Assembly (NCBI GenBank): GCA_030272155.1
Contig: CP126204.1
Coordinates: 1,913,501 to 1,977,500 of the forward strand
Reading direction: 5' to 3'
Source: Tetradesmus obliquus
Taxonomy: Eukaryota > Chlorophyta > Chlorophyceae > Sphaeropleales > Scenedesmaceae
Length of the DNA: 64,000 nucleotides
This document shows positions 1 to 64,000 of the stretch, in pieces; position 1 is the first letter of the stretch, and each line of letters starts with the position of its first letter. The position numbers were made by a program, and so were the translations under genes. Below the pieces are notes generated by a model that was given only the letters and a program-made list of their open reading frames with translations, ran no database searches and was not told the origin of the DNA.

Positions 1-3000
1 CGTTGAGCTTCATGGTGCAGGAGCCCAGCGGGATCATGGAGTGCGCCAGGCTCAGGTCGCGGTTCTCCAGGCGCTTCAGGTAGCGCAGCATCTCGTGCTC
101 GCTGCGGCAGCAGAGTAAGAACAAGACATGATGAGCCAGATCAGCGCGTGCAACAAATCATGAGTGCGCCAGGCTCAGGTCGCGGTTCTCCAGGCGCTTC
201 AGGTAGCGCAGCATCTCGTGCTCACTGCGGCAGCAGCAGCACAAAGTTGATGTGTGATCTCTTGATGTCAACATGCAGGAACCGTGCAGCTGGTACTGCA
301 GCAGTGCACAAGTACACAAAGAGAGCAGCGCAAAGCGCCGGCTGAATTACAGCAGTACCAGCTGCTGTGTGTCTGAAAAGATCAGAGTATATTGGCTTAG
401 CCAGATCACCCGTAGTAGCTGTTGCAGATCATCCACAGGAAGGGGCTGCTGGTGTGCATGTTATAGTAACACGTTATGACAAGCTCACCAGTGGTGGCTG
501 TTAAAGATCTGCTGCTGCAGGAAGGGGCTGCTGGTGTCAATGTTATGATCACACGTTATGACAAGCTCACCAGTGGTAGCTGTTGAAGATCTGCTGCTGC
601 AGGAAGGGGCTGCTGCGCTGGAAGGAGCCCAGCGCGGGCTGCACAGACGGCGCCAGAGAGGCGGCGGTGAAGCCGGCTGCCTTGCCGCCGTTGAGCACCT
701 GCGCAAGCATGGGAATGCAAATGCAGTTGATACAGAACAGGCGCATGCATGTGTGCGTGCATGTGTAAGAAAGGGGCCCTGGCGGCCACGTTGCACATAG
801 GACATAACTTATCTAAGATAGTGAAGAGAGTTGATATGCTGTAGACTAGGAAGAAAGAAAGTTCTGAACCATCCTCCATCCTCACCTTAGCAGCACGTCC
901 ACGCCAGCCAGGCGCGTTAGGACATACATTACCTTCGATAAGGTCAATATGCTGTATCTTGCGATGGAAAATGGAAAACAGATCTGATCCAATTCTCACC
1001 TTGAGCAGCACGTCCACGTCAGCTAGGCGCGTTAGGACATACATTCCCTTCAAGTAGGTCAATATGCTGTAGCTTACGATGGAAAATAACAAACAGTTCT
1101 AATCCAATTCTCACCTTGAGCAGCACGTCCACGTCAGCCAGGCGCGTGGTCTCGTCCAGGCTCACACCCACGTGGGTGGCATCCACCTTGCGCAGGTTCA
1201 CGCCGGCAGCCACACCAGCAGACAGCACCGCATCAGCAGATGGCACCTGCGGACAGCACACCAACACATACACGCACCGCTCTCAGCTCAGGGGCATGAG
1301 CGGCAGCATCAGGGGTAAGCGACAAGGCGTGCAGCACAAGGCACGTACTGCAGCACAGCAGTATGGCCCACACCATACCTGCTTGCAGAAAAGGAGCATG
1401 GCCAACCGCGGCTGCACTTGCCTGTTACATGCAAGAGCATGCAGCACAAATGGTCAGTGTGCCGAAGAAGTTGCTTGCTGGCCCACATGACATTCAGCCA
1501 CAGCTAACAGCTGTACACTCCCTAGATTATTGGGTTAGCGCACCTTGATGGTGAGCGTGTCGAAGAAGTTGTTGGCAGTGGGTGCCAGGCCCAGCTTCTT
1601 GGCTCCAGCCGCCAGCACAGCAGTCAGGCCGTGCACGCGGTCAGCGATCTCAGTCAGGCCCTTTGGCCCGTGGTACACTGCGTACAGCGCCGCCATGTTT
1701 GCCAGCAGCGCCTGCGCCGTGCAGATGTTGGAGGTGGCCTTGTCGCGCCTGATGTGCTGCTCGCGCGTCTGCATGGCCATGCGCAGCGCGGGCGCGCCCG
1801 TGGCGTCAATGGACACGCCGATGATGCGACCGGGCATCAGCCTGCGTGGCAAAGAGTGGGAAAAATAAGCAGGTGTGATACGTATGCGTGTACACATGCA
1901 GGTGCGTTGTGTGGCGTCGATGGACACGCCGATGATGCGGCCAGGCATCAGCCTGCATGCAAAAGCGTGGGAGATCAAACAGGTGTGATGAATATGCGTG
2001 TACACATGCAGGTGCGTTGTGACCGGTCGATGGGCATGTCGATGATGCGCCCGGGCATCAGCCTGCATGCAAAAGTATGCAGCAAGAACAGCGTGATGAG
2101 CATGCGTGTACACATGCAGGTGTGTTGTGTGGTGTTCAAGGACACGCCGATGATGCGGCCGGGCATAGCCTGCATGCGAAAATATGCAGCAAGAACAGTG
2201 TGATAAGCATGCGTGTACACATGCAGGTGTGTTGTGTGGCGTCGATGGACACGCCGATGATGCGGCCGGGCATCAGCCTGCGTGGCAAAGCGTGGGAAAC
2301 CATACAGGTGTGATGAATATGCGTGTACACATGCAGATGTGCTGTGTGGCGTCGATGGACACGCCAATGATGCAACCGGGCATCAGCCCGCGGAACAAGA
2401 AGAAATAGTGCAGTTCAGCAGCAACATGAATGCACGCACACACATGCTGCCATGCCTGCCACGAAGCATTGATGGACACGCCAAAGTTGCAGACAGGGAT
2501 GTGACTTCCGGCAACATACGCAGTTGCCCGTCCCTACGTAGGTGCAATCGACACACCTCTTGAACTCGTCGTGGCAGGACAGGAAAGCTGCGTAGGGCCC
2601 ACACAGCCACGCCATAGGCACGCCGAAACTCACACACAACCAGCCGCCTGCACATGCTACATAATGCAAATCAACTAGCGCACCTCTTGAACTCGTCGTG
2701 GCAGGACAGGAAGGCTGCGTGGGGGCCGCCATAGCCCATGGGCACGCCGAAGCGCTGCGCACTGCCCAGCACGATGTCTGCGCCCCACTCGCCTGGCGGG
2801 GCCAGCTTGGTGAGCGCCAGCAGGTCAGTGGCCACGCACACCTTAACGCCCGCCTTGTGCGCAGCATCCACCATGGACTGCAAATCCGAAGAGTGTACAG
2901 TGCAGCGCAGCCGATGGCAGCAGGTGGGCACAGGGTTGCTGCATGGCGACTTCAGAATTCAAGCGCTGCCAACGTTCACAGAAGCTGACAGCAGTTTCCT

Positions 3001-6000
3001 GAGGCTTCCAAAGCACCAATTCCCGGCGACGGCCGACCCGGTCGAACGCAGTCAAACTAACGCACCTTGTAGTCGTTGACCGAGCCGGTGGTGTCGGGGT
3101 ACTGCACCAGCACGCCGCACACGTCCTTGCCAAATGCCATGCTGCCCTCATCCACCACCTCAGCGACCAAGCCCAGGCCCTCTGCGCGCGTCTGGCACAC
3201 AGCAATGGTCTGCGGGTGGCACTTGGACTGCAAACAGCAGCAGCAGCAGCAAGAAGTGCGGCAGGCAGCCATGGTGGCAGGGTGTGAAACAGCAGGGCCG
3301 CAGAGACGGTGCGCCAGTTTTGTGGTGCTTGCAGGATCCGGCAGGAGCTGCGATCCAGCGCCATCAACGAAGCAAGGAATGCCACACAGCTCGCTACCAA
3401 TGCTGCAGCTGCTGTCACCTGCTCAGCTGCTGCTACCCGCTGCATCCTGGCGCACAGCCCGGTGCTGCCAAAAGCAGCATTACACGACCAGCACAACTCT
3501 TCTGGTTCGGCCCTGGCTGTTGTGTGCTGCTTTTCTGCTGCTGAAAGATAATGAAGCCCAAGGGACTTTCAACAAAGCTGCAACTCACGGACACCAGGAA
3601 GCCCGGCTTCTGCTGTGCTGCTGCTGCATGTGGCTGCCGCACGCAAGCATGCTGCCGCACGACAAACCAAACTCCTATTAGCCTGCAAGGAGCTGTTCAC
3701 AACGAAACAAAGCGCTTCTCATTTTGAAATCATTGGCTGCAACTCACGGACACCAGGAAGCGCGGCTTCTTGCCGCGTGCCACGGCGCTGCACATGGTCA
3801 TGGCCTCAGCAGCGGCAGTGGCCTCGTCCAGCAGCGAGGCGTTGCTGATCTGCATGCCCGTGAGGTCGCAGATCATGGTCTGGAAGTTCAGCAGGCTCTC
3901 CAGCCTGCAATTGTTGACACGGTTGCAGCAACCAAAAGATGTTATTTATTAGTTGGTGAGAAGCGAGCGCAAGATTTTACAGCAACAGTGTTGCTGTGCA
4001 GAACAAGCCATTGCTGTTACTGGAAATACGCAGTTTGTTGCCCTGCCCGTTTCTCGCTGTATGCATGCTGCTTCCAGTAATTGCTGCTGCACAGTGTGTG
4101 GCGAGCAGCGCCGCACGAAGCGCGGCACCAGCTGTTATTGAAGCCTGTGCCATCTCTACCCGGTATGACGTGCACTGCATGTACCCGGTACGCACCCAGC
4201 ACCCAAACATTGCTGCACAAGCAGATTGTTTCTTAGCGCCGCACCTGCCCTGCGCGATCTCCGCCTGGTATGGCGTGTACTGCGTGTACCATCCCGGGTT
4301 CTCCAGCACGTTGCGCAGGATGACGGGCGGCACGTGTGTGTCATAGTAGCCCATGCCGATGTAGCTCTTGAGCACGGTGTTCTTCTCAGCCATGTTCCTG
4401 CAAGCAGAGACATTACATCCGTGCTAGATAAGTCGAAGACATCAAGGCCTTGTTGCATAAGCAGTAGTAGCCCATGCCGATGTAGCTCTTGAGCACCGTG
4501 TTCTTCTCAGCCATGTTCCTGCAAGCAGAGACATTACATCCGTGTTAGATAAGCCGAAGACATCAAGGCCTTGTTGCATAAGCAGTAGTAGCCCATGCCG
4601 ATGTAGCTCTTGAGCACCGTGTTCTTCTCAGCCATGTCTCTGCAAGCAGAGACATTACAACCATGCTAGATACGCCGAAGACATTAAAGCTTTGTTGCAT
4701 AAGCAGTAGTAGCCCACTCCAATGTAGTTCTTGAGCACCGTGTTCCTCTCAGCCATGTTCCTGCAAGCAGAGCACAGCAATGCATATTGAACGCGCGTGT
4801 CAGCCAAGTTGTAGCAGCCCATGCCGATGTAACTCTTGAGCACAGCGTTCTCTTCTCAGCCATGTTCCTGCAAAAGAGGTCAAAGGCTTGTCAAACAAGC
4901 AGCAGAAGCCCATGCCGATGTAGCTCTTGAGCACAATTCATCAATGGCATGTTCCTGCAAGCCGGCGCAAGTAGGTGGTGCAGGCACTGCCAAGGTTCAG
5001 TCTTGGGCAAGCATGCGTGTTTCTGCTAGCATATGCGAGGCGCTGGTAGTCCTGCCATTGCAGCCAAAGCGATCTAAACAGCTTCAGTCGGGCAGCCACA
5101 CAACTGCAGTACATCGCTTGCTTCCAGAGGAGGTGTTGCTGCTTTACATGCTTGTTGCATGCAACCATTGCCTCTGCTGCGCTGCCGCCCACTGCCAGCG
5201 CTGCACTGCTTGCCCGGCACATTCCCCAGCCAAGTTCCCGCCAAAGTTCCCACCCAACTTCACGCCAAGGTTCTCACTTGAAGAAGCCCAGGAACTCCGA
5301 CTCCGTCATGCCCTCGCTGTAGATGCCCATGTCCATGGCGTCACCACGCCTGATGGACTTTGGCACAGTAGCATCAATCAGCGCATCCATGCTGGCAAAG
5401 CCGGTGGCCTGCGGCAGCCATACAGCACGGCCCACAAATGTCAGCATGTCAGCCATGAAGAAAACACAAAGGGGTGCGCATGGTGGCGTCAATCAGCGCA
5501 TGCATGCTGGCGAAGCCGGTGGCTTGCGAAAGATAGACAAGAACAACGACATAAAACAACTCACACAGCCCACAGAGGTCAGCTCTCAGTCACAATTTCA
5601 TAGTATGCAAGTTGCAGGAGCTGTGCGTGGTAGCTTACATGACTTGCTTGAGCACCCACACACAACGGGGCGATGACACAAGCGCTGTTGTCAGCCAGTA
5701 CATAGCCTGCCACACAGTACACATGCACAGAGGGACAGCGCAGCCACTGCTCAGCTGCGCCACACAGCACAGTGCAGGACCAATCTGCGGTACAGAGACA
5801 CCATGCGACCCTCTGCCTCTGCAGCTGCAGCAGCTGCGCAGACTGTACGCGCTGCGCTGTCTCGCCTCGCACCTGGACCATTGCTGCCTCCTCCTCTGTG
5901 TGAGGGGTAATTGCCGACTGGCATTCACTGCTTCATCAACAGATCAAACTTGCTTGCTGTAACTACTGCTACAGCTTTAGCCTCGCACCTGGACCATGGC

Positions 6001-7066
6001 TGCCTCCTCCTCAAGAGTGGTGCTGTTGTGGCGCGGCACAAAGCTGCACACACAGCAGCAGCGGCAACAGCAGCAGCAATGAGCAAGTATACTTGGAGCA
6101 GACACTGAATGTCAGCCTTGCGGTTATGCTGGGATGCAGCCAGCTTTTAGTATAAAGCATGACTTGACAAGGTTGCTTTATGGACGTGCAGCAGCGCAAT
6201 GGAAGGGCGTGGGAGTCGTGGGCATGTCAAATGTGTGCGGCAAGCACATGTGTGTGCTGAACAGATGACGTGTTGTTACCACTAAAATAAAGGATGGAAA
6301 CAGGGACAAAGAGTGGTGCATATGTATGCAGTGTTTGCAGGACATAGCTTTGTGTGGAAGTACAAGGCTGCATGGTGGATGCAGCAGCTGCTGCATCGTA
6401 GGAGGGTAGAGGCACCCACAGGCACTTTACACAACATGGCGTGCATCAACCACAAGCATATGCGTTCATGAATCTTCGTGGTTGTGATGATGTCAATACG
6501 TAGCAGTGCCCAAAGCCCCTTGCACGTCCACAATGGCTGAAGGTAATTTGACTCTGTGCTTGTCACAGCCATGCACTGCTGTGCTGCTGTTGTGCACACT
6601 ACTACATGCCTGCTGGCAGTGGTACAGCTTCCAGCAGGGATTCCAACCATGTGCAAAGCATACGTATGCAGCTACTCAAGCTTCAATTGCTTGACCAGCT
6701 GCACATGGCTGCCCAGCATGTTTCTGTTGCTGCCGAACCTACTTGTCTGATGGCTTCAGGGCGTCCAGGGAGATGTGGCGCACCCCCTGCGCTGCCAGCG
6801 GGATCGGCATCCGCCATGCTGACACTCCAAGCAACGAGCGGCCTGCGAAAACCAGGCGAGCACACGTATGTGACTGGCGCGCTCCACCTGGCGATGAGCA
6901 GAGGGGTATGCCGGTAGATCAATCACACACCTGCGCCAGCTGCGGCCAGACCAACCCCATTGGTGCTAATCATTCGCCGAGCCACATATTGGCCGCTCTG
7001 CTCTGAAGTGCGGGCTGCCTTCGCTGCAGCCCTGAGCAGGGAGCTGACAATCCGACCACGAGACAT
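1..7066 (-). CDS. GLDC: Glycine decarboxylase P protein, mitochondrial (N-terminal part; 3' end outside window)
   Basis: PLP-dependent P subunit of the mitochondrial glycine cleavage complex; it decarboxylates glycine and passes aminomethyl to H protein in photorespiration and C1 metabolism. Twelve exons were read on the minus strand: 7066-6931, 6842-6743, 6043-5989, 5408-5278, 4397-4245, 3904-3748, 3227-3066, 2877-2684, 1841-1544, 1246-1115, 698-571, 101-<1. All junction phases agree and give 582 codons. Residues 1-45 form a basic, Ser/Ala-rich presequence ([20 protein letters not shown]). Then follow family landmarks [105 protein letters not shown] and [14 protein letters not shown] at the edge. 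The catalytic PLP lysine lies further on, outside the window. Eight of eleven introns hold partial copies of neighbouring exon edges. The start codon is the only one that gives a presequence in phase with exon 2. Confidence 0.95.
158..236 (-). repeat. Intronic copy of the 5' edge of the twelfth glycine decarboxylase exon
   Basis: About 75 bp nearly identical to the exon at 1-101, including its acceptor, lying just upstream of it in the preceding intron. It encodes the same [20 protein letters not shown] stretch and is then lost in unrelated intron sequence. Confidence 0.8.
420..570 (-). repeat. Two decayed copies of the 3' edge of glycine decarboxylase exon 11
   Basis: The exon 3' end with its GTGAGC-type donor (real edge at 571) recurs at about 484-530 and, more degraded, at about 430-465. 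They are spaced roughly 80-85 bp and both lie downstream of the true donor on the coding strand. Confidence 0.7.
880..1035 (-). repeat. Two copies of the 3' edge of glycine decarboxylase exon 10
   Basis: The segment encoding LADVDVLLK plus its GTGAG donor (real donor next to 1115) is repeated at about 1000-1030 and 885-920. The following ~80 bp of intron is also similar, so the duplicated unit spans exon end plus intron start. Confidence 0.75.
1860..2395 (-). repeat. Five-copy, ~110 bp array of the exon 9 5' edge (glycine decarboxylase)
   Basis: Upstream of the true exon edge at 1841, the acceptor and first ~45 nt of exon 9 ([15 protein letters not shown]) are repeated with copy edges near 1952, 2061, 2168, 2278 and 2388, a period of about 110 bp. 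The intronic filler between copies is repeated too. Copies carry scattered substitutions and one has a 3 nt deletion. Confidence 0.85.
2555..2630 (-). repeat. Copy of the 3' edge of glycine decarboxylase exon 8
   Basis: About 70 bp copy of the exon end ([15 protein letters not shown] in the copy) with a GTGTGT donor, downstream of the true donor next to 2684. It is imperfect: GVPMGYGG has become GVPMAWLCG. Confidence 0.75.
3575..3612 (-). repeat. Copy of the 3' edge of glycine decarboxylase exon 6
   Basis: Short copy of the segment ending in PGFLVS plus GTGAGTTGCAG, matching the true exon end and donor at 3748. Confidence 0.7.
4398..4960 (-). repeat. Five-copy array of the exon 5 5' edge (glycine decarboxylase)
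   Basis: Upstream of the true exon 5 edge at 4397, the acceptor plus [18 protein letters not shown] segment recurs with edges near 4520, 4641, 4761, 4869 and 4956. Spacing is about 120 bp, shortening at the far end. The two farthest copies are the most degraded. The filler between copies is also repeated. Confidence 0.85.
5470..5535 (-). repeat. Copy of the 5' edge of glycine decarboxylase exon 4
   Basis: Encodes [14 protein letters not shown] behind an AG acceptor, upstream of the true exon edge at 5408. One D to H change relative to the real exon. Confidence 0.75.
5868..5896 (-). repeat. Copy of the 3' edge of glycine decarboxylase exon 3
   Basis: Repeats EEEAAMVQ plus the GTGCGAGG donor of the real 55 nt exon at 5989-6043, but lacks the upstream [10 protein letters not shown] half. 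This shows which copy is the true exon. Confidence 0.75.
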
Positions 7067-9175: not shown

Positions 9176-9896
9176 AAGCAACAGCAGCAAAAGCAACAGC
9201 TGCTGCAGATGCGGTGCTCACTGCCTCTGTCAACAGCTGACCTGGCATTGACTGTGTGCGGCTGGCTGCTGACTGTGCTGCTGCTGCTGCTGCTGATGCC
9301 GTAGGCTGGCCTGGTGCGCGAGGCCACGCTGTTGCGGCGCTTCGACCACCCCTGCGTGCTGTTGCTTGCCAACCCTTGATTGACTATGTGCAACCAGTTG
9401 CCTGCTGTTGACCGTGCTGCTGCTGCAGGCTGGTCTGGTGCGCGAGGCGACGTTGATGCGGCGCTTTGACCACCCCTGCGTGCTGCCGCTGCTGGCCAGC
9501 TTTGTGGCAGGGCGGCAGCTGTGGATGGTCACTCCCTTCATGGGCCAGGGCAGCATACGCAGCATCATGCTGCGCCAGTTCCCGCAGGTGGGCAAGCATG
9601 CTGATTCCATGTTGATACCAATGCTGCGAGTTTAGTCGAGTTCAACATTGTTTCTAAGTTAAGCCTGCCTACATTATGCTGTGACAGGTGCTGTGACATT
9701 AGCTGAGACAGCAGCTGAGGCAGCAGCCGCGGCAATAGCTGAGTCGACAGCTGCAACAGTTGCTGTGACGGTAGCTGCGGCAACAGCTGTGATTAGCTGC
9801 ACACCAAAGAGGTTTGCAGCAACCTCGGTGCTGCAAACAGGCTAGGCCATGCATCACTCAGCAAACTTTGCATAGTACATGTATCTGCAGGTGGTG

Positions 9897-9947
<51 letters not shown>

Positions 9948-10525
9948 GCCTGGAAGAGGTGGTGGTCGCCAGTATCATGCGCTACGTGCTGCTGGGGCTG
10001 CTGCTAACTTGCTGCTGCTGCTGCTGCTGCCAGGGCCTGGAGGAGGTGGTTGTTGCCAGCATCATGCGCTACGTGCTGCTGGGGCTGCAGTACGTGCACA
10101 AGAACGGCGGCATACACAGGGACATCAAGGTGAGCTGCTGCCTCCGTGGATGCTGCGCTGCAACAGCAAAGTGTTACATTACAATGTTACCATGTCACAT
10201 TTGTAGACGCGTTGCAGCTGGAACACACCAGCAAGGAGAACCAGATGCTTCAAATCTGAGTGCAGCTCAGCAGCAGCAATGGCTGCGGATGTCAACGACT
10301 TGGCCCGGCAGCACAGCATGTGCTGCGAATAGGTGGCTGAGTTGCTTGACCCGCCGAAAACAAATTGCGGGTTGTAACCAGGTATATCCTTGTGTGTCCC
10401 GCAATATCATTATGAAATTGCTTGCAGGCCGACAACATACTCATCTCTGAGGCGGGCCAGGTGTGCCTGGGGGACTTTGGCGTGGCAGCAACCTGCCTCG
10501 CCAGCCTGATGGACCAGCAGCAACA

Positions 10526-10587
<62 letters not shown>

Positions 10588-12782
10588 GCGGCTGCCCTGA
10601 GGTGGTGCTGGCTGGGTTGGGTCTGTCAGGGGAGCTGCGGGCCAAGACGTTTGTGGGCACGCCTTGCTGGATGGCGCCTGAAATACTGGCGCCAGAGGAC
10701 GATGAAGGGTGAGCGTTGGAGCGTCACCTTGCATTCAGGAGCAATGCGTGTGTGTTGGATTGTATCCCATGTACGATGCAACTGCGGGCATCTGGTCTTT
10801 CGGCGTCACCCTGTTGGAGCTGGCCATGGGCAAGCGAAAGTCAACAACCCTAGCCACATCACTCCAAACACTGTCACTCCAAACACTGTCAATTCAAACC
10901 ATCACAAATTACGGAAACCTTCAAATTTTGGTTCAATTTGTGCTGCAGTTATGATGCGTCTGCGGACATCTGGTCCTTTGGCATCACCCTGATGGAGCTG
11001 GCCCTGCGCAAGCCACAATGAACAACCCTAGCCAACCCTAGCCAATCACCCTAGCCAATCACAAAATTTGATTAAATGCTGTTGCAGGTACGATGCGTCT
11101 GCGGACATCTGGTCCTTTGGCATCACCCTGATGGAGCTGGCGATGGTCAATCACGTATTCTGATCACTTTTATCTTAACTGTATTGCAGGTACAATGCGT
11201 CTGCGGACATCTGGTCCTTTGGCATCACCCTGATGGAGCTTGCGCTGGGCAAGCCGCCCCTGGCCAAGCTGCCGCCGATGCGCGTGATCCTGGAGACAGC
11301 AAACAAGCCGCCGCCAGTGCTGCAGGACAGTCCAGACGGCCGAACCTTTTCAAAGGTGCGCTGATGCTTGAACCTTGAAAGTGTCTACGCTCTCTTTCCA
11401 ACAAAGGGCAGGCAAAGGACATGGCCGCAGCAGTGCGCTGACGCTTGCTCATGGGTGTGCTTTGTAGCACCAATGTGTTGTAGTTGTTGTCCTCAAGGCT
11501 TTGCATGCAATCTCCACAGCGGTTTCAGCTTGAACCTTTGGATGTTGCAGCCACCTAGATGCTCACGTTCAATCGCACCACAAAATAATCGCGCAGCTAC
11601 TCTGCTGCCGCACGCTGCGCCACTGTCACCTTTTTTTCAGGCCTTCAAGGACGTCGTCGCCGCATGCCTCACCAAAGACCCCCGCGCCCGGCCCTGCGCC
11701 TCTGAGCTGCTGGGCCAGCGCTTCTTCAAGCTCGGTTACTGACACTTTTGTCATGTGCAGGGACTTGCAGACTCGCTTGCGTCGCCCTGCCCAAATCCAC
11801 CAACCTCCACAGTGGCTGCAAGCACATACGGAGCCAAGTGAATGTGCACAGATCCATACAAACACTGATGCGCTGCCGATGCGTGTGAATGCCACACAGG
11901 CCTTTAAGGACATCGTCGCCGCCTGCCTCACAAAAGACCCTCGAAGCCGGGCCTGCGCCTCAGAGCTGCTTGGTCACCGCTTCTTCAAGCAAGCCAAGGA
12001 CAGTGCCTTCCTGCAGAAGCATTTCCTGAGCGGAGTGCCGCCGCCTGCGCCCTCACACAGAGCACGCGTGAAGCAGGGGCTCAAGGTGTGCGAGGCAAAG
12101 AGTGACTTGACAACGTTGTCATTATTGACATGTTCAGTCTGATGACCTGATGATCGGGTTGGAGCTTTGCACCACCCATGACTCAGGTCACACAACCTGC
12201 ACACAATTGCAGCGGAACATGCGTAACAACCTGAAACACTGAGCCCTACACAATGCACATCTTGTTAGTTGCAGGACGTGATGTCTGGCGGCTTAGCTGG
12301 CTCAGGCCGCAAGTTGTGTGTTGCCTGCACTTTGACACACAGCCTGCAGCACTGATGACACATGCAGGCAAGGTTGCGCACAGTTTAAGGTACCTTGCCC
12401 CACCCGCACCAACAGGAACCCATGACCACAGCCTGCGCCCAGCCCTGAGCCCCTGCACCCTGTGCATTGCGCATCCATATGAATCTAATGCTTTTTTCCA
12501 TTTTCAAATGCAGGAGGTGATGTCTGGCGGCTTGGCTGGCTCAGGCCGCAAGTTCAGCGAGTGGCTGTTCCCAGCAGCGGAGGCAAGGGAGCATCTGCAA
12601 AGCTTTGCAGCTGATGATGCTGGTGCTGATGAGGCCAATGGTGACCAGCACCACCAGCTGCCTGCAATCGCTGCAGAGTCCAGCAGCGAAGAAGCAGCGG
12701 CAGCTGATGCAGAGGATACGGATGCAGCAGCAGCAGCAGCAGCAGCGGCAGCAACAGGTGCAGATGCAGGCGCGGACAGTGT

Positions 12783-32373: not shown

Positions 32374-32445
<72 letters not shown>

Positions 32446-37636: not shown

Positions 37637-37714
<78 letters not shown>

Positions 37715-54362: not shown

Positions 54363-56709
54363 ATGCTACCAGTTGTGTTTGCGCGGCAACAAGCCGCGAA
54401 GCTCCTGGCAGCAAGCTGCAGCAGCCTGCTGCGCAGCTGCTGCTGCAGCGGCGTCCTAGCAGCAGCACCTCAGCAACAGCAGCAGCTGCTGCAGCAGCTG
54501 CCGCAGCACCACCACTGGCAGCAGCACGCGGGGTTTGCAGCAGCAGTGCCATCCATACTGTCTGATGCCTCAGTGCTAAAAGGTCCAGCCCCTGGCAAGT
54601 CGGGGCTTGTGGTGCAGTACCCATTTCCTGTAGAGTATTACAGCCCGCGGCGAGTGACACTGTACAACTTAGACAAGCAGCAGCTGGCAGCAGTGGAGCT
54701 GCCTGGAGACATCTTCAATGTGCCAGGTGGGTGACGTGGTTGGATGATATGTTGATTGTTGCACTGGATCTGTAGTGGCATGAAAGTTGAATCAAGCAGC
54801 AGCTGGCAGCAGTGGAGCTGCCAGGAGTCATCTTCGATGTGCCACCTGTGGGAAAAGAGGTTGGGTGATGCAGAGATTTGTTGTAGACATCATCCACGAG
54901 GTGGTGCTTGCTTGATGAGCTGCAGATTGTGTAAAGGTCATCTGCTGCTGCTGCTGCTGCTGCCGGCGCAGTGTGTGGTGGCATCATCAACGAGGTTGTG
55001 CTGCCCTGGCTGCTGTTGTTTGCTGCTGACATCACTGCCGTTTGCTGCTGCTGCTGCTGCCGCAGTGCGCGGGGACATCATCCACGAGGTGGTGCGCTGG
55101 CAGCGGGCCAAGGCGCGCCAGGGCACACACAAGACCAAGGAACGCAGCGAGGTGCGTGGCTGTGTGCTGCATTGAAATGTCAAAATCGAAACAGTGGCTG
55201 GCTTTTATCTGGATGCATCCTCTTGCACCGTGCTGTGTGCGACATGGACCTCAGCGAGGGAGGCGCTTCAAGCCGTGGCCACAGAAGGGGATGATGATGC
55301 AGTAAGCTACATCAGACAGTGGACACTGTAAATATGTAACATTGTAACACCTGCCGCCACAGGTCTCAGGAGGCGGGCGCAAGCCGTGGCCGCAGAAAGG
55401 TAGCGACAGGGCGCGGCACCAATGCTTGCACACTGCCCCCACACTTCTGCTCGACGCCTGCTTGCACGCCCTTTGCACCTCTGCTGCTTGCACCACGACT
55501 ATCAACAAACCTAAACGTAATAAACTAAAAACATAACAATGTAACACCTGCCGGCCACAGGTTTCAGGAGGCGGCCGCAAGCCGTGGCCTCAGAAGGGCA
55601 CCGGCAGGCTGCGGCACCAATGCTTGAGCACTGCTCCCACACATCTACTCAACGTCCGCCTGCATGCCAACAACATCAACAACAAACCAACGGCAAACTA
55701 ACACCTGCCGCTATCTCGGACAGGTCTCGGGTGGCGGCCGCAAGCCGTGGCCTCAGAAGGGCACCGGCAGGGCGCGGCAGGGCTCCAATCGCGCCCCGCA
55801 GTGGCGCGGCGGCGGCATTGTGCACGGGCCTGTCCCTCGCTCGTATGCATACGCGCTGCCAAAGAAGGTGCGTTTGCAGCAGTACTAGTCATGCTGCTGT
55901 GTTGAATTGCACTACATGTTTGTGTGCTTCTGCACCATGCCGTGCTTGATGTCTGCAGCAAACAGTGAAAGCTGCATCAGCAATTGCACGCTTCTGTGTC
56001 GCTGTTGTCCTCACATATTCCTGCTGAACTTCAAACTTTTTCCCCGAAACCTCCTGCACTGGCAAACCCTAAAACCGCAGGTGCGCCGCCTGGGCCTCAA
56101 GTGTGCGCTGTCAGCCAAAGCCAATGAGTGCCGCCTGCTGCTGCTCCCCCACAGACCCTAAATTTCTTCCGCATGCAAACCCTAAACCCTCTTTTACTCA
56201 AACTTCAAACCCTAAAACCGCAGGTGCGCCGCCTGGGCCTCAAGTGTGCGCTGTCAGCCAAGGCCAATGAGGGCCGCCTGCTGCTGCTGGACAGCCTACA
56301 CCCCACCTCGCCCAAAACCAAGGCCATAGCAGCAAAGCTCTCCCACCTCCTGCAAGAGCATCCTCGCCTCAATGCCTTGCTGGTAGACTCAGCAAAAGAC
56401 GGCGATGATGGCGGCGTCATGCTGCGCCGCGCGGCGCGCAACCTGCCGGGAGTCGAGATCCTGCCTTCGATCGGCGCAAACGTGTACAGCATCGTGCGGA
56501 AAGATGTGCTGGTTATGACGAAGCCAGCGCTTGATAAGCTGGTGGAGCGGCTGCGCGCGCCGATTAATCGGCTGGGGGCAGCGGGGCTGGCGTACCGCGC
56601 AAAACTGGAGGCGCGGCGGCAGCAGGCAGCAGTGGAGCGAAGGCAGCAGCGGCTGCAGCAGCAGCAGCAGCAGCAGCAGGTGGCCTCGGATGCAGGCGGC
56701 AGCAGCTAG
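54363..56709 (+). CDS. MRPL4: Ribosomal protein uL4, mitochondrial
   Basis: Four exons: 54363-54726, 55066-55151, 55724-55867, 56224-56709; phases agree (359 aa). A large-subunit ribosomal protein that lines the exit tunnel. Residues 1 to about 60 form an Arg/Gln/Ala-rich leader that fits mitochondrial import. The uL4 core includes [20 protein letters not shown], the tunnel loop [20 protein letters not shown] (about 153-172), [15 protein letters not shown] and [16 protein letters not shown], then a Rossmann-like C-terminal half. The C-terminus ends in a CAG-encoded Gln run. The loop and HGP motif identify the family; the mitochondrial assignment rests on the leader and [17 protein letters not shown] N-terminus. 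Every intron contains copies of exon edges, and the 3' end is copied repeatedly after the stop. Confidence 0.92.
54780..55010 (+). repeat. Copies of uL4m exon 1 end and exon 2 start
   Basis: About 54793-54848 repeats [11 protein letters not shown] and on to FDVP from exon 1. [11 protein letters not shown] segments at about 54887-54912 and 54966-55005 are copies of exon 2 (real start 55066). Confidence 0.75.
55235..55625 (+). repeat. Three copies of the tunnel-loop exon edge of uL4m
   Basis: [14 protein letters not shown] segments begin near 55250 (decayed), 55363 and 55562, before the real exon at 55724. The last two have CACAG acceptors and read [13 protein letters not shown]. Confidence 0.8.
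56081..56161 (+). repeat. Alternative copy of uL4m exon 4 with in-frame stop
   Basis: Behind CCGCAG it reads [20 protein letters not shown] and soon reaches a TAA at 56159-56161. It is phase-compatible with exon 3 and would give a uL4m lacking the C-terminal half. Confidence 0.75.
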
Positions 56710-57345
56710 GCGGCAAGCAGATGGTGCAGTGGTGGGCACAGGCGCTGCAGCAGCAGCAGCAGCAGGTGGCTTCGGCTGCAGGCGGCAGCAGCTAGGCAGC
56801 AAGCAGGTTTTGCAGCGGGGCTGGCAGCATCGGGTGAAGCTGGAGGCACAGCGGCAGCAGTTTAGCAGCGGCGGAGCGGCAGCAGCAGCAGGTGGCGGCA
56901 GTCGGCAGTAGCTAGGTAGCAAGCATGTTGCAGGGGCTTGCGTACCGGGCAAAGCTGGAGGCGCGCAGGCAGCAGCTGGCAGTGGAGCGGCGGCAGCTGC
57001 AGCAGCAGTAGCAGCAGCAGCAGGCGGTGGCAGCTGGCAGCAGCTAGGCAGCGAGCAGACTGTGCAGCGGGACTGGCGCCCGGGCCAAGTTGGCGGCTTG
57101 GCGGCAGCAGCTAGCAGCGGAGCTGCGGCAGCAGGCGGCGGCAGCTGGCAGCAGTTGGGTAGCAAGCAGACTAGGCGGCAGCTGCTGGCAGCACCGTGGA
57201 AAGCTGCAGGTGCGCAGGCGCCAGCAGTCGCCAGCAGGTGGCCTCGCGTGCAACCTAGCAGCGGAGCGCGCACGGACTCCGCTCAGCTCGGAGCTGCTGC
57301 TGCAGCAGCAGGCCCTGGCAGCAGCTAGGTAGCTGGCAGGTTGCG
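56710..57345 (+). repeat. Tandem degenerate copies of the uL4m 3' end beyond the stop codon
   Basis: Four to five units of about 110-150 bp, each with an [17 protein letters not shown] core and a GGCAGCAGCTAGGNAGCAAGCA-like end, follow the real stop at 56707-56709. They keep the CAG-rich Gln/Arg texture but drift in frame. Confidence 0.75.
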
Positions 57346-57972: not shown

Positions 57973-58189
57973 ATGGCGTTAGTATGGCAGCCCCAAGAGG
58001 CTGCTTACCTGCAGCTGTGCCAGCTGCTGTCAGACTTTCAGAAGCCTGGAGCAAACCAAGCACTGGTGAGACTGCCAAGGGGATGAGTTAGCTGAATGCT
58101 TGCCTGATGGAATTTGGTCAGACTGTGATGCTGCAAGGCTGTAGCTTGGACCGGTAGCATTGCTGGAGATGTTGCAAAGCAGTTGCGTG

Positions 58190-58221
<32 letters not shown>

Positions 58222-58894: not shown

Positions 58895-58946
<52 letters not shown>

Positions 58947-61900
58947 CTGCAGGTGCGCCAGAGTGCGGGGCTGCTGCTGAAGAACAACCTCAAGGAGCAG
59001 TACGCGGGGCTCTCGGAGGACTTCAGGAACTACATCAAGGTGGGGCGCAGCAGCAGCAGCAGCAAGATCAAGCATTGCTGCAGCAGCAAGCGCAGTTGCA
59101 GCACAGCAGCAGCAACAGCAGCAGCACCAGCATCAGCATCAGCAGCAGGGAGAAAGCGTGGCTGCAGCTGCAGCGCAGCAGCCTTGGACAGCGTCAAGCA
59201 TGGTGGCATGTTTGGCAGTTGTGCTGTGATGCACTGAGGCAGGCAGCTGTCGCTGCTGTTGCGTCATGAGTTGCTCATGCTTGGAAGGCGCAGCGGCAGG
59301 CGATGTTGTGCCTGTACTCGCAGTTTTCGGTTTTGCTTGCGTGCATGCATGTATGCAGCTGCAACATAGCCCAGCAGCGCCCACATGCTGACAACCTTAT
59401 GACACTGATGGCGTGTTGTCGCAGGGTGACCTGCTGCACGTGCTGTGCCACCCAGAGCGCGTGTTGCGCCACACCGCAGGCAGCATCACCACAACAGTAG
59501 TGGGCACACTGGGGCTAAGTGGCTGGCCTGAGCTGGTGGTGTGGCTGGGAGCAAGTTTGCAGGGCAGCGGCGACAGCGCTGCCCTTGATGGAGCACTGGA
59601 CAGCTTGGCTAAGATTGTGGAGGACCACCCACATGAGGTGAGCAGTTGGAGTAATAACATTGTTATAACACACTGACAAGTAGCAGTGTATCTACAATGA
59701 GTTAAGCTGGGGTTTTGCTGGTTGCGGGGGCAGCGGCCACAGCGGTGCACTTGATGGAGCACTGGACGGCTTGGCCAGCATTGTGAGAGACCACCCCGCG
59801 TGAGGTCAGCAGTGACGCTTGTGATGGTGGTTCTAACATAATAACGACATGTACCACGTCCGCCTAATCCTGATACATGTTTTAAATCGATTTGTGCCGC
59901 ATCTTTGACCCACCTGCAGATGGACACGCGCCTGGTGGGTGCCAGCTGGGGCCCCGCGCCCGCGCCGGTCAGCAACATGCTGGTGCCGCCGCTGCCCTTT
60001 AAACACCTTATGAAACTGAAAACAACTGAGTTAAGTCCCAATGTTGTGCCTGTCATCATTGCAGATGGACACACGCCTGGTGGGTGCCAGCTGGGGCCCC
60101 GCCCCTGCGCCAGTCAGCAACATGCTGGTGCCGCCGCTGCTGGCTCTGCTGGGCAGCCCCGCAGCCGAGGTGCGGCGGCGTGCACTGGCCGTGCTCAACG
60201 AGATGTTTGGCCAGATGCCTGCTGGCTTCCAAGCAGCACTGCCGCAATACACAGAGGTAAGTGCATAGATTTTGCCGGCGTGTTCTCCATTCGTTTGCAA
60301 GGGCAAGAGGATCATGGGCTGTGCTGGTGTTGCATGTGACAAGCGTGCTTCAACGTGATGAGGCCGCTGCTGCTGCGAGGTTGTCGGCCACAAATCATAG
60401 CTAGTTAGTGTCAGGTTGTGGGCGCTTGCTGCGCTGGCCGTGCTCAACGAGATGTTTGGCCAGATGCCTGCCGGCTTCAAGGCAGCACTGCCGCAGTACA
60501 CTGAAGCAAGTGCATCTACCGCGCCGGCGTGTTCCTTAGCAAGGGCAAGAAGATCATGGGCTGTGCTGGTGTTGCATGTGACAAGCGTGCTCTGGCCTCT
60601 GCTGCTGCGAGGTTGTCTGCCACACATCATACTGAGTTGGTTGGTCTGCTCTCCCAATGACTTCTGCAGGCTGTGTTCAAGCTGGCCACTGATGAGAGCC
60701 CGGGCGTGCGGCGCGAGGTGTGCATCGGCTTCTGCCAGCTCATCGCGGTGCACCCGGAGCTGCTGCAGGCGCAGCTGCCGCAGCTGGTCGAGTACATGCT
60801 GGTCTGCAACCAGGTGAGCCACCTTCTCGGGTTGGTACTTGGGTGTGTTTGGATCCCTTTGTACACGCGGGTGGCGCAGCTGATCAGTAGAGTGCATGCT
60901 GGTCAGCAACCAGCTGAGCCACAAGCCTGCTCTTTTGTTTGTTGATCAGGTTTGTGTGGTTCATTTTGTGTGGGGTGGTGCCGCAGCTGGTCTGTGTGGT
61001 TCATTTTGTGTGGGGTGGTGCCGCAGCTGGTCGAGTACATGCTGGTCATCAAGTGTGAGAGCAGGCTCAGAAGGCTCGAAGAAGGTGCTGCAGGTCATAC
61101 AACAACATCAACCAGCCCCCTTACAGACATTTCTTTGCAGGATGTTTGACGGTGTGGCACTGGAAGCTGCGGATTTTTGGCTGGCTTCCACGCGTCTCTT
61201 CACTTGCATCACACGTTTCTGGCTCATTCAGGTGCTGCTCAGGGCGCTGACGATGAGGTGGCGCTGGGGGCTGCTGAGTTCTGGCTGGCCTTTGCTGCGT
61301 CAATGCTGGTTTGCAATCGAAACACACCATAATAACTCTGAATGTTCTGTTTTCAGTATTGATTGCTTGTGCAATCATTTGCAGGACGCTGACGATGAGG
61401 TGGCGCTGGAGGCTGCTGAGTTCTGGCTGACCTTTGCTGTATCAATGCCATAACAACCCAACACATTACAATGATCAACTAATCAATAATGATTGCTTGC
61501 GCAACCATCTGCAGGATGCTGATGATGAGGTGGCGCTGGAGGCGGCTGAGTTCTGGCTGGCCTTCTGCGAGAGTGATCTGGGCATGGAGCTGCTGGTGCC
61601 GGTGATGTCGCGCCTCATCCCCGTGCTAATGAAAAACATGGTGAGCAATGCGGCCTTGTAGACAAGACATGTTATTGACACGTAATGGACAATTTAGTAA
61701 GTGACATGTGTGACGTAACCTGGGCATGGAATTGAACCTGTGTGTGTCGCTGTTGCATGGCATGTGCCTGGTGCTGCGCTCCGTCCTGCAAGTCAGCAGG
61801 TCGAATTGCATATGCATCTGGGTTTCCTTCGCAACTGGAGGTCTTTGACGAGTACGATGAGGAGATGCATTTGTGCTGCGTGTGATATGCCTGTTGCTGC

Positions 61901-62675
61901 CGTCCTGCAAGTCAACAACCCATATACTCTTCCGTACGGACCATGCCCCGCGAACTTTTTGCGGGCGACTAAAACTCCTCTTGCAACCACAGGTCTTTGA
62001 CGAGTACGATGAGGAGGTGCAAGCAGCAGCAGAACCGGCTGAGCTGCAGCAGGGCCAGCCAGACAGCAAAAAGGGTCTAGGAAGTCAGCAAATCACCTTT
62101 CCATCGCATCTGTGTTTCTGTTGCATATGCAGGTCATGGACGAGTACGATGAGGAGGTGCATTTGTGTTGCATGTGATATGCCTGTTGCTGCCGTCCTGC
62201 AAGTCAACAACCCATATTGCGACTAAAACTCATCTTGCAACTACAGGTCTTTGACGAGTACGATGAGGAGGTGCAAGCAGCGGAAGAGGCTGAGCTGCAG
62301 CAGGGCCAGCCAGACAGTGAAAAGGACATACGGCCCACACACGCAAAGCACGGCAAGGGACGGGCAGAGGGTGGCATGATGGACGGCGCAGCAAACGGCG
62401 AGGGTGGGTGGCAGGGTGTTTGCGGCAATCTGTTTTGTAGTTGTAGATGCTGTTATTGCAAGCTGTGCTTAGCTGTGCAGGCAGGCAGGCTTTGTGTGCT
62501 CGCTGGCGGTTTTGCAGGTTGAGGGCTACGCATTTGCAAATCACATGTATCTTGCAAGCAGCTGCATGCAGCTACAGGAGCTGAAACAGCACCTTGCTTG
62601 CTGTTTGCCTCATGTTGGTTCACTGCTGTTGCGTGGCGCCGGCAGAGTTTGACTTGCTGGCTGCCCTGCCGCTTC

Positions 62676-62709
<34 letters not shown>

Positions 62710-64000
62710 CTTTCACAGATGAAGATGACGGCGATGACGATGACGAGGCCATGCGGGTGTGGAACCTGCGCAAGTGCAGCGCAGCGGCGCTGGACATGCT
62801 GTCCAATCACCTCAACGATGAGCACGTGCTGCCGCTGCTGCTGCCCATCGTGCAGCAGCGGCTTGGCGAGGCAGATTGGCGTGTGCGAGAGAGCGCAATC
62901 TTGGCGCTGGGTGCGGTCAGTGAGGGGTGCCATATGGGCCTGGCGCCCTACCTGACAGATATGGTCAAGATGCTCCTGCCTGTCCTGCAGGTGAGTTGTC
63001 ACTTCTTGTTTGTAAGAGAGTTTGAGTTGAGTGCTATTCTGGCGCTGGGTGCGGTCAGTGAGGGGTGCCATATGGGCCTGGCGCCCTACCTGACAGATAT
63101 GGTCAAGATGCTCCTGCCTGTCCTGCAGGTGAGTTGTCACTTCTTGTTTGTAAGAGAGTTTGAGTTGAGTGCTATTCTGGCGCTGGGTGCGGTCAGTGAG
63201 GGGTGCCATATGGGCCTGGCGCCCTACCTGACAGATATGGTCAAGATGCTGCTACCTGTCCTGCAGGTGGGTTGTCACTTTTTATTTGTCTCTCTCTTTT
63301 TGCCGCGGCTCATGGTGCGCATCATCACGTGCTGGTGCATGGAGCTTGGCGTGATTTGCATACGTTGCACTGACGTTTGTAACGGGTTCTGTTATAACGT
63401 GTAACTGTCTCCCCGTTCCTGCTTGCAGGACCCGCGGCCCATGGTGCGCATCATCGCCTGTCTCTTCCTTTCCCGCTGTTGTACCAAAGCTTGTCAAACG
63501 TGTCACTGTCTCTGTGTCAATGATGTTTGTAGGACCCGCGGCCCATGGTGCGCATCATCACCTGCTGGTGCCTCTCGCGCTATGTGCAGTGGGTGCTGAT
63601 GCCACCCGGTAGCGCTGAGATTGCTCCTGGCGCGCTCCTGCCGCGAGTAGCACCTGAGAATGAGGTGAGTGCGTGACACACGCATAAACATACACACAGA
63701 CGTAGACATACTTCTGTTGGCGCCTTCTTTAGATGCTTCAAGCACTCTGTTGCAGCACTGTGTTGGCGCTCCCCTGCTGCGTGCTAGGCCAGAGAATGAG
63801 GTGAGTGCACGATCAAGGCATACGCGCAGAGCTCTTGGCACACGTAAAGTGGCAAGATGTGTGTTCACCTGTGGTGCAGTGACAAGATGTGTGCTGATCA
63901 CCCAAGTGTAACTAACTTGGAATCCACATGCATCGCTGTTGTCGCTGATTCTTTTCTCTGCCTGATGATTCATATATTCAAACCACGCAGGCGCTGTTTG
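57973..64000 (+). CDS. TNPO1: Transportin / importin beta-2 (N-terminal part; 3' end outside window)
   Basis: Ten complete exons: 57973-58065, 58528-58620, 58953-59039, 59425-59637, 60065-60256, 60670-60813, 61515-61640, 62247-62403, 62719-62990, 63533-63664. An eleventh begins at 63991. Phases agree (503 codons). A karyopherin that carries PY-NLS cargoes such as RNA-binding proteins through nuclear pores under Ran-GTP control. Landmarks: MALVWQPQEAAYLQLCQLL, DFNNYLSFIF, RQSAGLLLKNNLKEQY, RHTAGSITTTVVGT, QLPQLVEYML, EVALEAAEFWLAFCES, SEKDIRPTHAKHGKGRAEGG, an acidic stretch (DEDDGDDDDEAM, the H8-loop equivalent), WNLRKCSAAALDMLSNHL, RESAILALGAVSEGCHMGL and PMVRIITCWCLSRYVQWV. The order of HEAT repeats matches the transportin-1 family. 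At least six introns have exon-edge copies. Confidence 0.93.
59730..60000 (+). repeat. Copies of transportin exon 4 end and exon 5 start
   Basis: 59732-59812 repeats GALDGLASIV-type sequence from exon 4 with a spoiled frame. 59920-59995 repeats MDTRLVGASWGPAPAPVSNM from exon 5 (real start 60065) behind TGCAG. Confidence 0.8.
60422..60515 (+). repeat. Copy of the 3' edge of transportin exon 5
   Basis: LAVLNEMFGQMPAGFKAALP and on to QYTE plus GCAAGT. The donor has changed from GTAAGT to GCAAGT. The intron part after it is also duplicated. Confidence 0.8.
60860..61445 (+). repeat. Copies of transportin exon 6 end and exon 7 start
   Basis: Fragments of LPQLVEYMLV recur near 60870-60915 and 61015-61045, with a 47 bp tandem repeat around 60952-61030. 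Exon 7 start copies (ADDEVALEAAEFWLAF-like) lie near 61140, 61240 and 61385 ahead of the real edge at 61515; similarity rises toward it. Confidence 0.8.
61838..62170 (+). repeat. Three copies of the 5' edge of transportin exon 8
   Basis: VFDEYDEE segments near 61841, 61993 and 62133 precede the real exon (62247). The middle copy extends to QQGQPDSKK, almost the full exon half. The filler is also repeated. Confidence 0.8.
62991..63268 (+). repeat. Two near-identical 138 bp in-frame copies of the 3' part of transportin exon 9
   Basis: After the real donor (62991) the unit [14 codons of intron + 32 codons of exon ending LLPVLQ] is repeated twice, with edges near 63128 and 63267. The unit length is 138 bp (46 codons) and no stop interrupts the frame from exon 9 through both copies. 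Confidence 0.9.
63300..63470 (+). repeat. Copies of the 5' edge of transportin exon 10
   Basis: LMVRIITCWCMELG near 63309-63350 and DPRPMVRIIACLF near 63430-63465 precede the real exon at 63533 (DPRPMVRIITCWCLSR). Confidence 0.8.

What the first reader, a model, noticed from the sequence alone, without database searches (positions are those of the whole stretch)
1..64000. Pervasive tandem duplication of exon/intron junctions inside introns
By eye about 44 of 82 modelled introns, in all ten confident genes, hold one to five partial copies of an adjoining exon edge together with its splice site and some flanking intron. There are two forms: acceptor copies placed before the real exon, and donor copies placed after it. 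Spacing is usually 90-140 bp. Copies range from near-identical to barely detectable, and the nearest is often the best preserved. Because intron filler is copied too, the process acts on DNA, not mRNA. It would lengthen introns stepwise and line up competing splice sites. I know tandem duplication as one proposed route of intron birth, but I know of no genome described where edge copying is this dense.
Basis: partly seen in the sequence, partly recalled or inferred. Interest (0 to 1): 0.88.

Follow-up and report, generated by a model that had tools for sequence, protein, structure and literature searches.

The report
Exon-edge copies filling algal introns
In this green-alga genome about half of the introns examined carry extra copies of the edge of the neighbouring exon, splice site included, which lengthens the introns and lines up spare splice sites without changing the protein.

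Summary
The window lies in the Tetradesmus obliquus assembly with OEZ86 locus tags. In ten gene models 41 of 118 internal exon edges (32 of 59 introns, all ten genes) have junction-spanning copies in the adjoining intron; three mismatched-intron controls gave 0 of 118 each. Of 53 local repeat clusters, 43 hold a splice junction and 3 more the end of a coding sequence with its stop codon. Nearest copies lie about 122 bp away (5-95%: 86-162). Twenty loci from all 17 contigs look alike. Inner array units are whole tandem units, intron flank included; the outermost copy often matches only up to the splice junction, even in a 100% identical array. Exon halves stay similar while flanks fade. The three coding-end cases, found on rechecking, show that splicing is not required. 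My reading: recurrent ~120-bp duplications across borders of coding sequence, harmless because the complete exon is still used, whose coding half is then kept alive by sequence transfer from the functional exon. The duplications are shown; the renewal is inferred. I found no description of this in the papers I could search.

The parts
33..236 (-). GLDC: acceptor copy (157-236) before the real exon edge at ~102
403..615 (-). GLDC: donor copies after exon 571-698, period ~82
878..1147 (-). GLDC: donor copies after exon 1115-1246, period 115
1800..2392 (-). GLDC: five acceptor copies before exon 1544-1841, period ~110; outermost matches the exon only
2554..2751 (-). GLDC: donor copy after exon 2684-2877
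3577..3770 (-). GLDC: donor copy after exon 3748-3904
4344..4962 (-). GLDC: five acceptor copies before exon 4245-4397, period 121
5368..5528 (-). GLDC: acceptor copy before exon 5278-5408
5864..6012 (-). GLDC: donor copy after exon 5989-6043
9278..9485 (+). protein kinase: acceptor copy before exon 9429
9902..10088 (+). protein kinase: acceptor copy before exon 10034, period 85
10761..11255 (+). protein kinase: three acceptor copies before exon 11190
15570..16119 (+). weakly supported GH16-like gene: acceptor copies before exon 16064
16145..16837 (+). weakly supported GH16-like gene: donor copies after exon ending 16177
23727..24165 (+). prolyl 4-hydroxylase-like: three donor copies after exon 23617-23775; outermost matches the exon only
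25345..25753 (+). prolyl 4-hydroxylase-like: three-unit array over exon 5/6; the functional copy is not settled
28597..28901 (+). Raf-like kinase: two acceptor copies before exon 28832; outermost exon only
29298..29558 (+). Raf-like kinase: acceptor copies before exon 29523
30015..30424 (+). Raf-like kinase: donor copies after exon ending 30065
31466..31703 (+). Raf-like kinase: acceptor copy before exon 31644
35993..36136 (+). DnaJ: acceptor copy before exon 36115
36830..37022 (+). DnaJ: acceptor copy, 71 nt of exon at 96% identity, no flank homology found, before exon 36952
37222..37392 (+). DnaJ: acceptor copy before the corrected exon start 37357
37862..38016 (+). DnaJ: donor copy after exon ending 37898
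38141..38344 (+). DnaJ: acceptor copy before exon 38279
38841..39019 (+). DnaJ: NOT a splice site; copy of the end of the coding sequence (last 50 nt, stop codon 38891-38893 and 14 nt beyond), starting 59 nt after the stop
43949..44255 (+). unknown algal gene (OEZ85_004413 counterpart): donor copies after exon ending 43972
44439..44655 (+). same gene: acceptor copy before exon 44606
44672..44986 (+). same gene: donor copy after exon ending 44706
45266..45583 (+). same gene: donor copies after exon ending 45321
45723..45895 (+). same gene: acceptor copy before exon 45845
50387..50782 (-). Rrp8-like methyltransferase: NOT a splice site; copy of the end of the coding sequence across the stop codon (50637-50635), starting 76 nt after the stop
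50786..50987 (-). Rrp8-like: acceptor copy before the last exon (5' edge 50847)
51650..52054 (-). Rrp8-like: donor copies after exon 51979-52101
52292..52483 (-). Rrp8-like: donor copy after exon 52448-52588
54674..54869 (+). ribosomal protein L4: donor copy after exon ending 54726
55329..55779 (+). ribosomal protein L4: acceptor copies before exon 55724
56063..56288 (+). ribosomal protein L4: acceptor copy (65 nt of exon, 97%) before exon 56224
56578..57228 (+). ribosomal protein L4: NOT a splice site; repeats of the end of the coding sequence across the stop codon (56707-56709), CAG-rich
59562..59813 (+). importin: donor copy after exon ending 59637
59915..60140 (+). importin: acceptor copy, 76 nt of exon at 95%, all four differences synonymous, before exon 60065
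60181..60631 (+). importin: donor copy after exon ending 60256
60770..61047 (+). importin: donor copies after exon ending 60813
61240..61569 (+). importin: acceptor copies before exon 61515
61751..62325 (+). importin: acceptor copies before exon 62247
62891..63289 (+). importin: two donor copies after exon ending 62990, period 138, 93-98% identical

Best explanation
Short tandem duplications (about 120 bp, same orientation) recurrently arise across the borders of coding sequence in this alga: splice junctions above all, but also coding ends. They are tolerated because the complete exon is still used (the spliceosome takes the 3'-most acceptor or 5'-most donor; at a coding end the original stop codon comes first), so the protein is unchanged and the intron or 3' end grows by one unit. 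The non-coding half of the copy then drifts away, while the exon half and its splice site stay recognisable because sequence keeps being transferred to them from the functional exon (gene conversion, or unequal exchange between exon-edge repeats, which also adds whole units and gives the arrays). The functional exon is the only part held by selection and so acts as master copy; repeats without an exon part cannot be renewed and vanish. Shown: the duplications, their bias to coding edges, the period, the array anatomy, exon usage in the genes compared. Inferred: the renewal step and its molecular route.
For: 43 of 53 local repeat clusters hold a splice junction and 3 a coding end (random placement of the clusters meets a modelled junction 13.5 +/- 3.3 times, where 45 were counted before correction). 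All 46 clusters that touch curated gene spans hold one or the other. Edges 41/118 against 0/118 in three controls. Coding ends: 3 of the 4 gene ends looked at (DnaJ, L4, Rrp8-like; not the 46.9 kb gene) have a copy spanning the stop codon, 59-224 nt behind it. Twenty other loci: 46 of 74 clusters at predicted junctions, 15 near or inside predicted exons, 11 outside predicted genes, 2 intron interior. Inner units are complete tandem units (flank identity up to 100%); in 12 of the 22 arrays printed the outermost copy shares 9 nt of intron or less (one of the 22 is the L4 coding end, two of the 12 are weak). Flank homology: 34 of 70 copies at p<0.01 (29 of 65 without the coding ends, my subtraction), and 8 of 23 single-copy edges at p<0.05, Fisher p 2e-4 (one search corrected), so flanks were often copied and then lost. 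Copy against copy, exon-derived sequence differs by 13.0%, intron-derived by 21.7% (12.7 and 21.4 without L4). Splice dinucleotides survive in 119 of 136 copies. Indels in the exon part are mostly not multiples of three (16 against 2), so translation does not keep the copies. The protein annotated on this very assembly (OEZ86_008486, contig length equal to C14) uses the junctions I called and no copy; likewise DnaJ and the 43-47 kb gene with proteins of another T. obliquus record set (OEZ85) and transcript-derived relatives.
Against: Differences between copy and exon are synonymous more often than a neutral copy plus a constrained exon predicts: 0.623 against 0.412 (76 edges; expectation). Simple one-genome conversion does not predict this; some constraint on copies, conversion from other alleles, or hypermutable third positions may be needed. 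Eleven of 25 single-copy edges show no flank homology (p 0.5 or more) although the exon part is 80-97% identical, which also fits copying of the edge alone. The narrow ~120-bp period is unexplained. No population or relative DNA was available to see an event happen.
Confidence: 0.53

Rival explanations
1. Purely neutral and untargeted: ~120-bp tandem duplications happen everywhere, are purged from exons, and only those across coding borders stay visible because one partner is under selection. No renewal, no targeting.
For: Border-crossing duplications are exactly those that leave the protein intact, and coding ends are hit as well as splice sites. With short ancestral introns (~220 bp) a simulation gives junction:interior 238:45 or 227:53 among detected repeats. 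Exon copies and fourfold sites of the exon both change, so copies are not frozen.
Against: With current intron lengths the same simulation gives 159:198, 121:140 or 119:54, while clusters touching curated gene spans are 43 at splice junctions, 3 at coding ends and none wholly inside an intron; even at 238:45 the chance of no interior one among 43 is about 6 in 10,000. Introns without repeats still have a median of 311 bp. In L022 the outermost copy is 54/54 identical in the exon with an unrelated flank.
Confidence: 0.22
2. Targeted copying of exon edges: a process tied to splice junctions (for example splicing-linked breaks or RNA-templated repair) copies the exon edge with a few nucleotides of intron, and only later are whole units amplified.
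For: Outermost copies stop within 9 nt of the junction in 12 of 22 arrays printed; direct repeats far outnumber inverted ones; single-copy edges without flank homology; few repeats outside genes.
Against: Three coding ends without a splice site are copied in the same way. A continuum of flank identities from 100% to about 60% at similar exon identity, and significant flank homology overall. The end of the match at the junction may reflect what selection preserves, not where copying began. The exon-internal end varies widely (22-111 nt).
Confidence: 0.11
3. The copies are kept by selection for a function, such as decoy splice sites or regulated unproductive splicing.
For: Synonymous excess, slow decay of exon half and splice site, 0 stops in 1073 codons of 65 window copies.
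Against: Frameshifting indels are common (16 against 2); 7 stop codons in the 63 copies of other loci; 17 of 136 copies have lost the splice dinucleotide; copies also lie behind stop codons; presence in half of the introns of unrelated genes makes a shared function hard to imagine.
Confidence: 0.08
4. Assembly artefact or spread of a mobile element (introner-like).
For: None found beyond repetitiveness itself.
Against: Nearly all copies differ by substitutions or indels and each matches only its own exon (0 of 118 in mismatched introns; 105 of 107 pairs local).
Confidence: 0.01

Closest known systems
Tandem duplication across an intron/exon boundary in the potato RdRp gene (Ma, Lan & Niu 2016, PMC4974935; abstract and Results section read)
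   Same: A tandem duplication that takes in the 3' end of an intron and the 5' end of the next exon, with splice signals carried along; the paper also mentions an 83-bp intronic duplication in the same gene.
   Different: One case, and it created a new spliced intron; here half of the introns examined carry such copies, on donor and acceptor side, often in arrays, and no new intron or exon was seen in the three genes compared.
[quoted passage not shown]
   Same: Tandem duplication of DNA with splice signals, one copy ends up intronic.
   Different: Those start from exonic segments with a proto-splice site and give new introns; here copies sit in existing introns or behind stop codons and exon interiors are rarely copied.
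Small tandem duplications from breaks with 3' overhangs, Pol alpha-primase fill-in (PMC8355091, abstract and passages seen)
   Same: A known route to short direct tandem duplications of DNA.
   Different: Shown in mouse cells at induced breaks; no link to exon edges in what I saw. Whether it acts here was not testable.
Tandem exon duplication / mutually exclusive exons (recalled)
   Same: Exon sequence with splice signals repeated beside the original.
   Different: Here one edge of the exon is repeated, with one splice site.
Introner elements (recalled)
   Same: Genome-wide intron change.
   Different: Introners are one sequence dispersed to many genes; here every copy is private to its own exon.

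Membership tests
Tandem duplication crossing an intron/exon boundary (potato RdRp type) | duplicated segment includes intron end and adjoining exon edge in direct orientation | tested here: met
   69 junction-spanning copies at 41 of 118 edges; inner units with flank and exon edge
Tandem duplication crossing an intron/exon boundary (potato RdRp type) | a new intron is gained | tested here: not met
   annotated and transcript-derived proteins show the original exon joins only, in the three genes compared
Rogers intron gain by exonic tandem duplication | duplication of an exon-internal AGGT-containing segment | tested here: not met
   69 hits span the junction; exon-only hits 17 against 8 in each control draw, some of them near-edge; AGGT content not examined
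Introner or other transposable element | same sequence present at many unrelated loci | tested here: not met
   0 of 118 edges hit an intron of another gene in three draws; 105 of 107 repeat pairs local
Tandem exon duplication | whole exon with both splice sites duplicated | tested here: not met
   exon parts 22-111 nt at one edge; one search dropped hits covering whole exons, one search did not, and the window's copies stop short of the other edge; the 25345-25753 array is unsettled
Concerted evolution by gene conversion | repeats track changes of the master copy | tested here: inconclusive
   exon halves diverge less than flanks, but the synonymous excess is not predicted by simple conversion; needs strain DNA
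Pol alpha-primase type small tandem duplications | dependence on end-joining and CST-Pol alpha | not testable with these tools
   needs mutants

The most novel reading that the evidence does not exclude
Introns of this alga grow by a self-renewing process in which each functional exon edge acts as a master template that keeps regenerating its own non-coding copies, so that intron length and a reservoir of competing splice sites are by-products of selection on the exon.
Probability: 0.32. Interest if true: 0.87.

Novelty: new variant of a known kind. Interest (0 to 1): 0.77.

Why it matters
What makes introns long is an open question, and transposons are the usual answer (recalled). Here a countable unit of about 120 bp, copied from the exon edge, goes with visible growth: introns with repeats are about 160 bp longer (median 475 against 311). 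The published mean intron of T. obliquus is 462 bp against 230-302 bp in four other green algae (PMC5966456, passages seen), and my 59 intervals average 454 bp (a few hide missed exons), so edge copying is a candidate cause of that difference. If the sampled rate holds genome-wide (inference), there are thousands of natural experiments on splice-site choice: similar sites about 120 bp apart, of which one is used. It also misleads gene finders: my own called several copies as exons and three coding ends as donors.

Tried and rejected
Gene finding: the first self-trained model collapsed onto CAG repeats and was dropped; a version with minimum intron length and repeat masking worked, and its extra exons that were copies were removed by hand. 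Exon 61232-61308 of the importin was removed as a copy.

My own errors, found on rechecking: three modelled donors (DnaJ, L4, Rrp8-like last exons) are coding ends. They entered; one search repeats the main numbers without them, with little change. The finding made me lower the splice-targeted rival from 0.17 to 0.11 and the functional one from 0.10 to 0.08, and raise the best explanation from 0.50 to 0.53, the neutral one from 0.20 to 0.22 and the novel case from 0.30 to 0.32. Some predicted donors in the other 20 loci may be coding ends too.

Translation of copies: suggested by the synonymous excess, rejected as sole cause because most indels shift the frame. I tried to explain the excess by CpG and base composition; partly possible, not settled. 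Edge-only birth as the general rule: not adopted because flank identities form a continuum, kept as a rival. Inverted repeats: few. tRNA scan: none.

Rows dropped: leave out, of the 96 hits, loci L005 and L006 (weak hits), predicted exons inside arrays and one uncertain gene (L009, L014, L015), exons with a stop in frame, and copies under 75% identity; one search leaves out only L005, L006 and copies under 75%; itself dropped hits covering nearly whole exons. Searches use 70 copies (at least 70% identity, 20 nt of exon, reaching the junction) of the 188 hits, many of which are CAG-type repeats; the GH16-like gene was not. The simulation used the gene set before these corrections.

Papers: of ten searches, five looked for tandem duplication of junctions or intron growth, two for Scenedesmus/Tetradesmus genomes, for assemblies and intron statistics, for repair routes. 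No listing named dense edge copying; I opened five papers only (PMC5966456, PMC2891723, PMC4974935, PMC7955037, PMC8355091). Subscription papers and preprints were not searchable.


Full report
Where it is. The window is G000:C14:1913501-1977500, in an assembly of 104.66 Mb and 17 contigs. A Raf-like kinase modelled here matches OEZ86_008486 of Tetradesmus obliquus, whose contig length (4,804,715) equals that of C14; another hit has the length of C1. The organism is thus T. obliquus (Sphaeropleales).

Gene models. A small home-made gene finder trained on the glycine decarboxylase gene and then on the window plus 20 loci gave ten genes that I curated by hand: glycine decarboxylase P (GLDC; named from recalled sequence, it was not among the nine proteins), a protein kinase, a GH16-like gene (below the Pfam cut-off), a prolyl 4-hydroxylase-like protein (2OG-Fe(II) oxygenase plus ShK domain; the finer name is recalled), a Raf-like kinase, a DnaJ, an unknown algal protein without Pfam match, an Rrp8-like methyltransferase (Methyltransf_8; Rrp8 is recalled), ribosomal protein L4 and an importin (HEAT and IBN_N). 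DnaJ agrees with OEZ85_004411 except for one stretch of 13 residues that I had missed and one substitution; the Raf-like model agrees at every join with OEZ86_008486 apart from stretches I had missed; the unknown gene agrees with OEZ85_004413 at 98% apart from a missed stretch. Proteins from transcripts of relatives show the same joins where they cover them. None of these proteins contains a copied edge.

The repeats. Same-strand self-comparison gives 107 pairs, 105 local; the opposite strand gives 11 rows. They form 53 clusters, 45 with a modelled junction; random placement of the clusters gives 13.5 +/- 3.3, highest of 300 draws 26. Rechecking moved one more cluster to the junction class (DnaJ exon start 37357) and three out of it: the last exons of DnaJ, L4 and the Rrp8-like gene run on to stop codons at 38891, 56707 and 50637 (minus strand), and the repeats there copy the coding end across the stop codon, starting 59, 224 and 76 nt behind it; the fourth gene end looked at, at 46.9 kb, has none. 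Result: 43 splice-junction clusters, 3 coding-end clusters, 7 others. All 46 touch curated gene spans; the seven others lie outside them (7803, 11638, 12270, 19315, 32518, 47777, 63303), and at least 12270 and 63303 abut predicted exons that I did not curate. By edge, 41 of 118 internal edges have 69 junction-spanning copies in their own intron, and 0 of 118 in introns of other genes, three times.

It is genome-wide. In 20 loci of 10 kb from all 17 contigs there are 74 clusters; 50 overlap a predicted junction, 42 in the stricter count (random 17.8 +/- 3.5), 46 with the retrained models, where 15 more touch or neighbour predicted exons, 11 lie outside predicted genes (at least one of them a long satellite) and 2 in an intron interior. 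These models are ab initio only and, as the window showed, may call coding ends donors. Of 329 predicted edges tested there, 56 have copies.

Anatomy. Over 76 edges without the coding ends, the nearest copy, when under 180 bp (66 edges), lies at a median of 122.5 bp (5-95% 86-162); the exon part is 22-76 nt on the acceptor side and 23-111 nt on the donor side. In arrays the inner units are full tandem units, for example 100% identical over 80 nt of intron and 54 nt of exon at L022 acceptor 7320, whereas the outermost copy of the same array has 54 of 54 exon bases identical and an unrelated intron flank that still ends in a proper acceptor. In 12 of the 22 arrays printed the outermost copy shares 9 nt of intron or less (two of these are weak); in 7 it shares 20-39 nt and in 3 more than 40.

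Decay. Between non-functional copies the exon-derived part differs by 13.0% and the intron-derived part by 21.7% (pairs within an array are not independent; 12.7% and 21.4% when the L4 pairs are subtracted). Flank homology is significant in 34 of 70 copies against flanks of other introns and in 10 of 25 single-copy edges against shuffles, 8 of 23 without coding ends (Fisher p 2e-4). Splice dinucleotides are intact in 119 of 136 copies. Median splice-site scores, computed before the correction, are 8.5 against 9.8 bits for acceptors and 7.5 against 10.0 for donors, copy against real.

Coding pattern. Over 76 edges, one copy each, differences between copy and exon fall on codon positions at 0.065, 0.052 and 0.149, fourfold sites 0.153, synonymous share 0.623 (165 against 100), while 0.412 is expected for a neutral copy of a constrained exon. 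Indels not divisible by three outnumber others 16 to 2, with 2 stops. The window alone gave 0 stops in 1073 codons; the other loci gave 7 in 63 copies. So copies are not simply translated, yet they look more constrained than plain decay predicts. This remains unexplained; candidates are conversion from other alleles, mutation bias at third positions (copy against copy also shows a third-position excess, 118 against 87 and 65), or weak constraint.

Is more than neutral duplication needed? I simulated neutral duplications of 118 +/- 18 bp in these genes, with decay, and searched them much as I searched the window. Detected junction:interior counts were 159:198, 121:140 and 119:54 with current introns (intron decay 1, 1.7 and 3 times that of the copy), and 238:45 and 227:53 with introns shortened to about 220 bp. 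The curated genes show 43 splice-junction clusters and no cluster wholly inside an intron. If the true ratio were 238:45 the chance of that is about 6 in 10,000. Introns without repeats have a median of 311 bp, so the shortened setting is generous to the neutral view. Some bias to coding borders, or renewal of repeats with a coding half, is therefore needed.

Interpretation. I favour renewal: a functional exon keeps its sequence, the copy next to it is close enough for recombination, and each exchange refreshes the exon half and sometimes adds a whole unit, while flanks drift. This accounts for the exon-exact outer copies, the arrays of whole units, the lack of pure intron repeats, the survival of splice sites, and the copies of coding ends, which a splicing-linked process would not make. 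The first event would be a plain short tandem duplication, known from potato (PMC4974935) and explicable by break repair (PMC8355091). Targeted edge copying and purely neutral survival are the alternatives.

Consequence. The published mean intron length of T. obliquus is 462 bp, against 230, 302, 284 and 270 bp in Raphidocelis, Monoraphidium, Chromochloris and Chlamydomonas (PMC5966456, passages with Table 1). My 59 intervals average 454 bp. Edge copying is a direct candidate for the excess.

Limits.

Noticed in passing
window 38841-39019, 50387-50782, 56578-57228: Ends of three coding sequences are copied across the stop codon into the sequence behind them, in the manner of the exon edges but without a splice site; start codons were not examined.
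   Followed up: partly
window 47777-48893: Eight head-to-tail units of about 139 bp (also read as 4 of 275 bp), 92-95% alike, between two genes; period like the exon-edge arrays but no exon was recognised there.
   Followed up: partly
window 7762-8064: A 37-bp inverted repeat pair (95%) about 230 bp apart with an internal 11-bp direct repeat, like a small terminal-inverted-repeat element in DNA between genes.
   Followed up: no
window 22078-22221: A 47-bp unit repeated twice at 100%, with a near-perfect 97-bp palindrome in the same stretch.
   Followed up: no
window, many places (e.g. 10515-10586, 32339-32445, 37638-37714): CAG/CTG triplet runs are very common and misled the first gene finder.
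   Followed up: partly
L020 1-3959 and 4086-6039: Satellite-like arrays with offsets of about 274 and 351 bp, 91-95% alike.
   Followed up: no
window 43402-46936: Gene of unknown function; the named ones among its 15 hits at E<=1e-10 are green algae, the rest unnamed records; no Pfam family.
   Followed up: partly
window 25345-25753: In the prolyl 4-hydroxylase-like gene three array units all look like the exon; which one is spliced is unclear.
   Followed up: no
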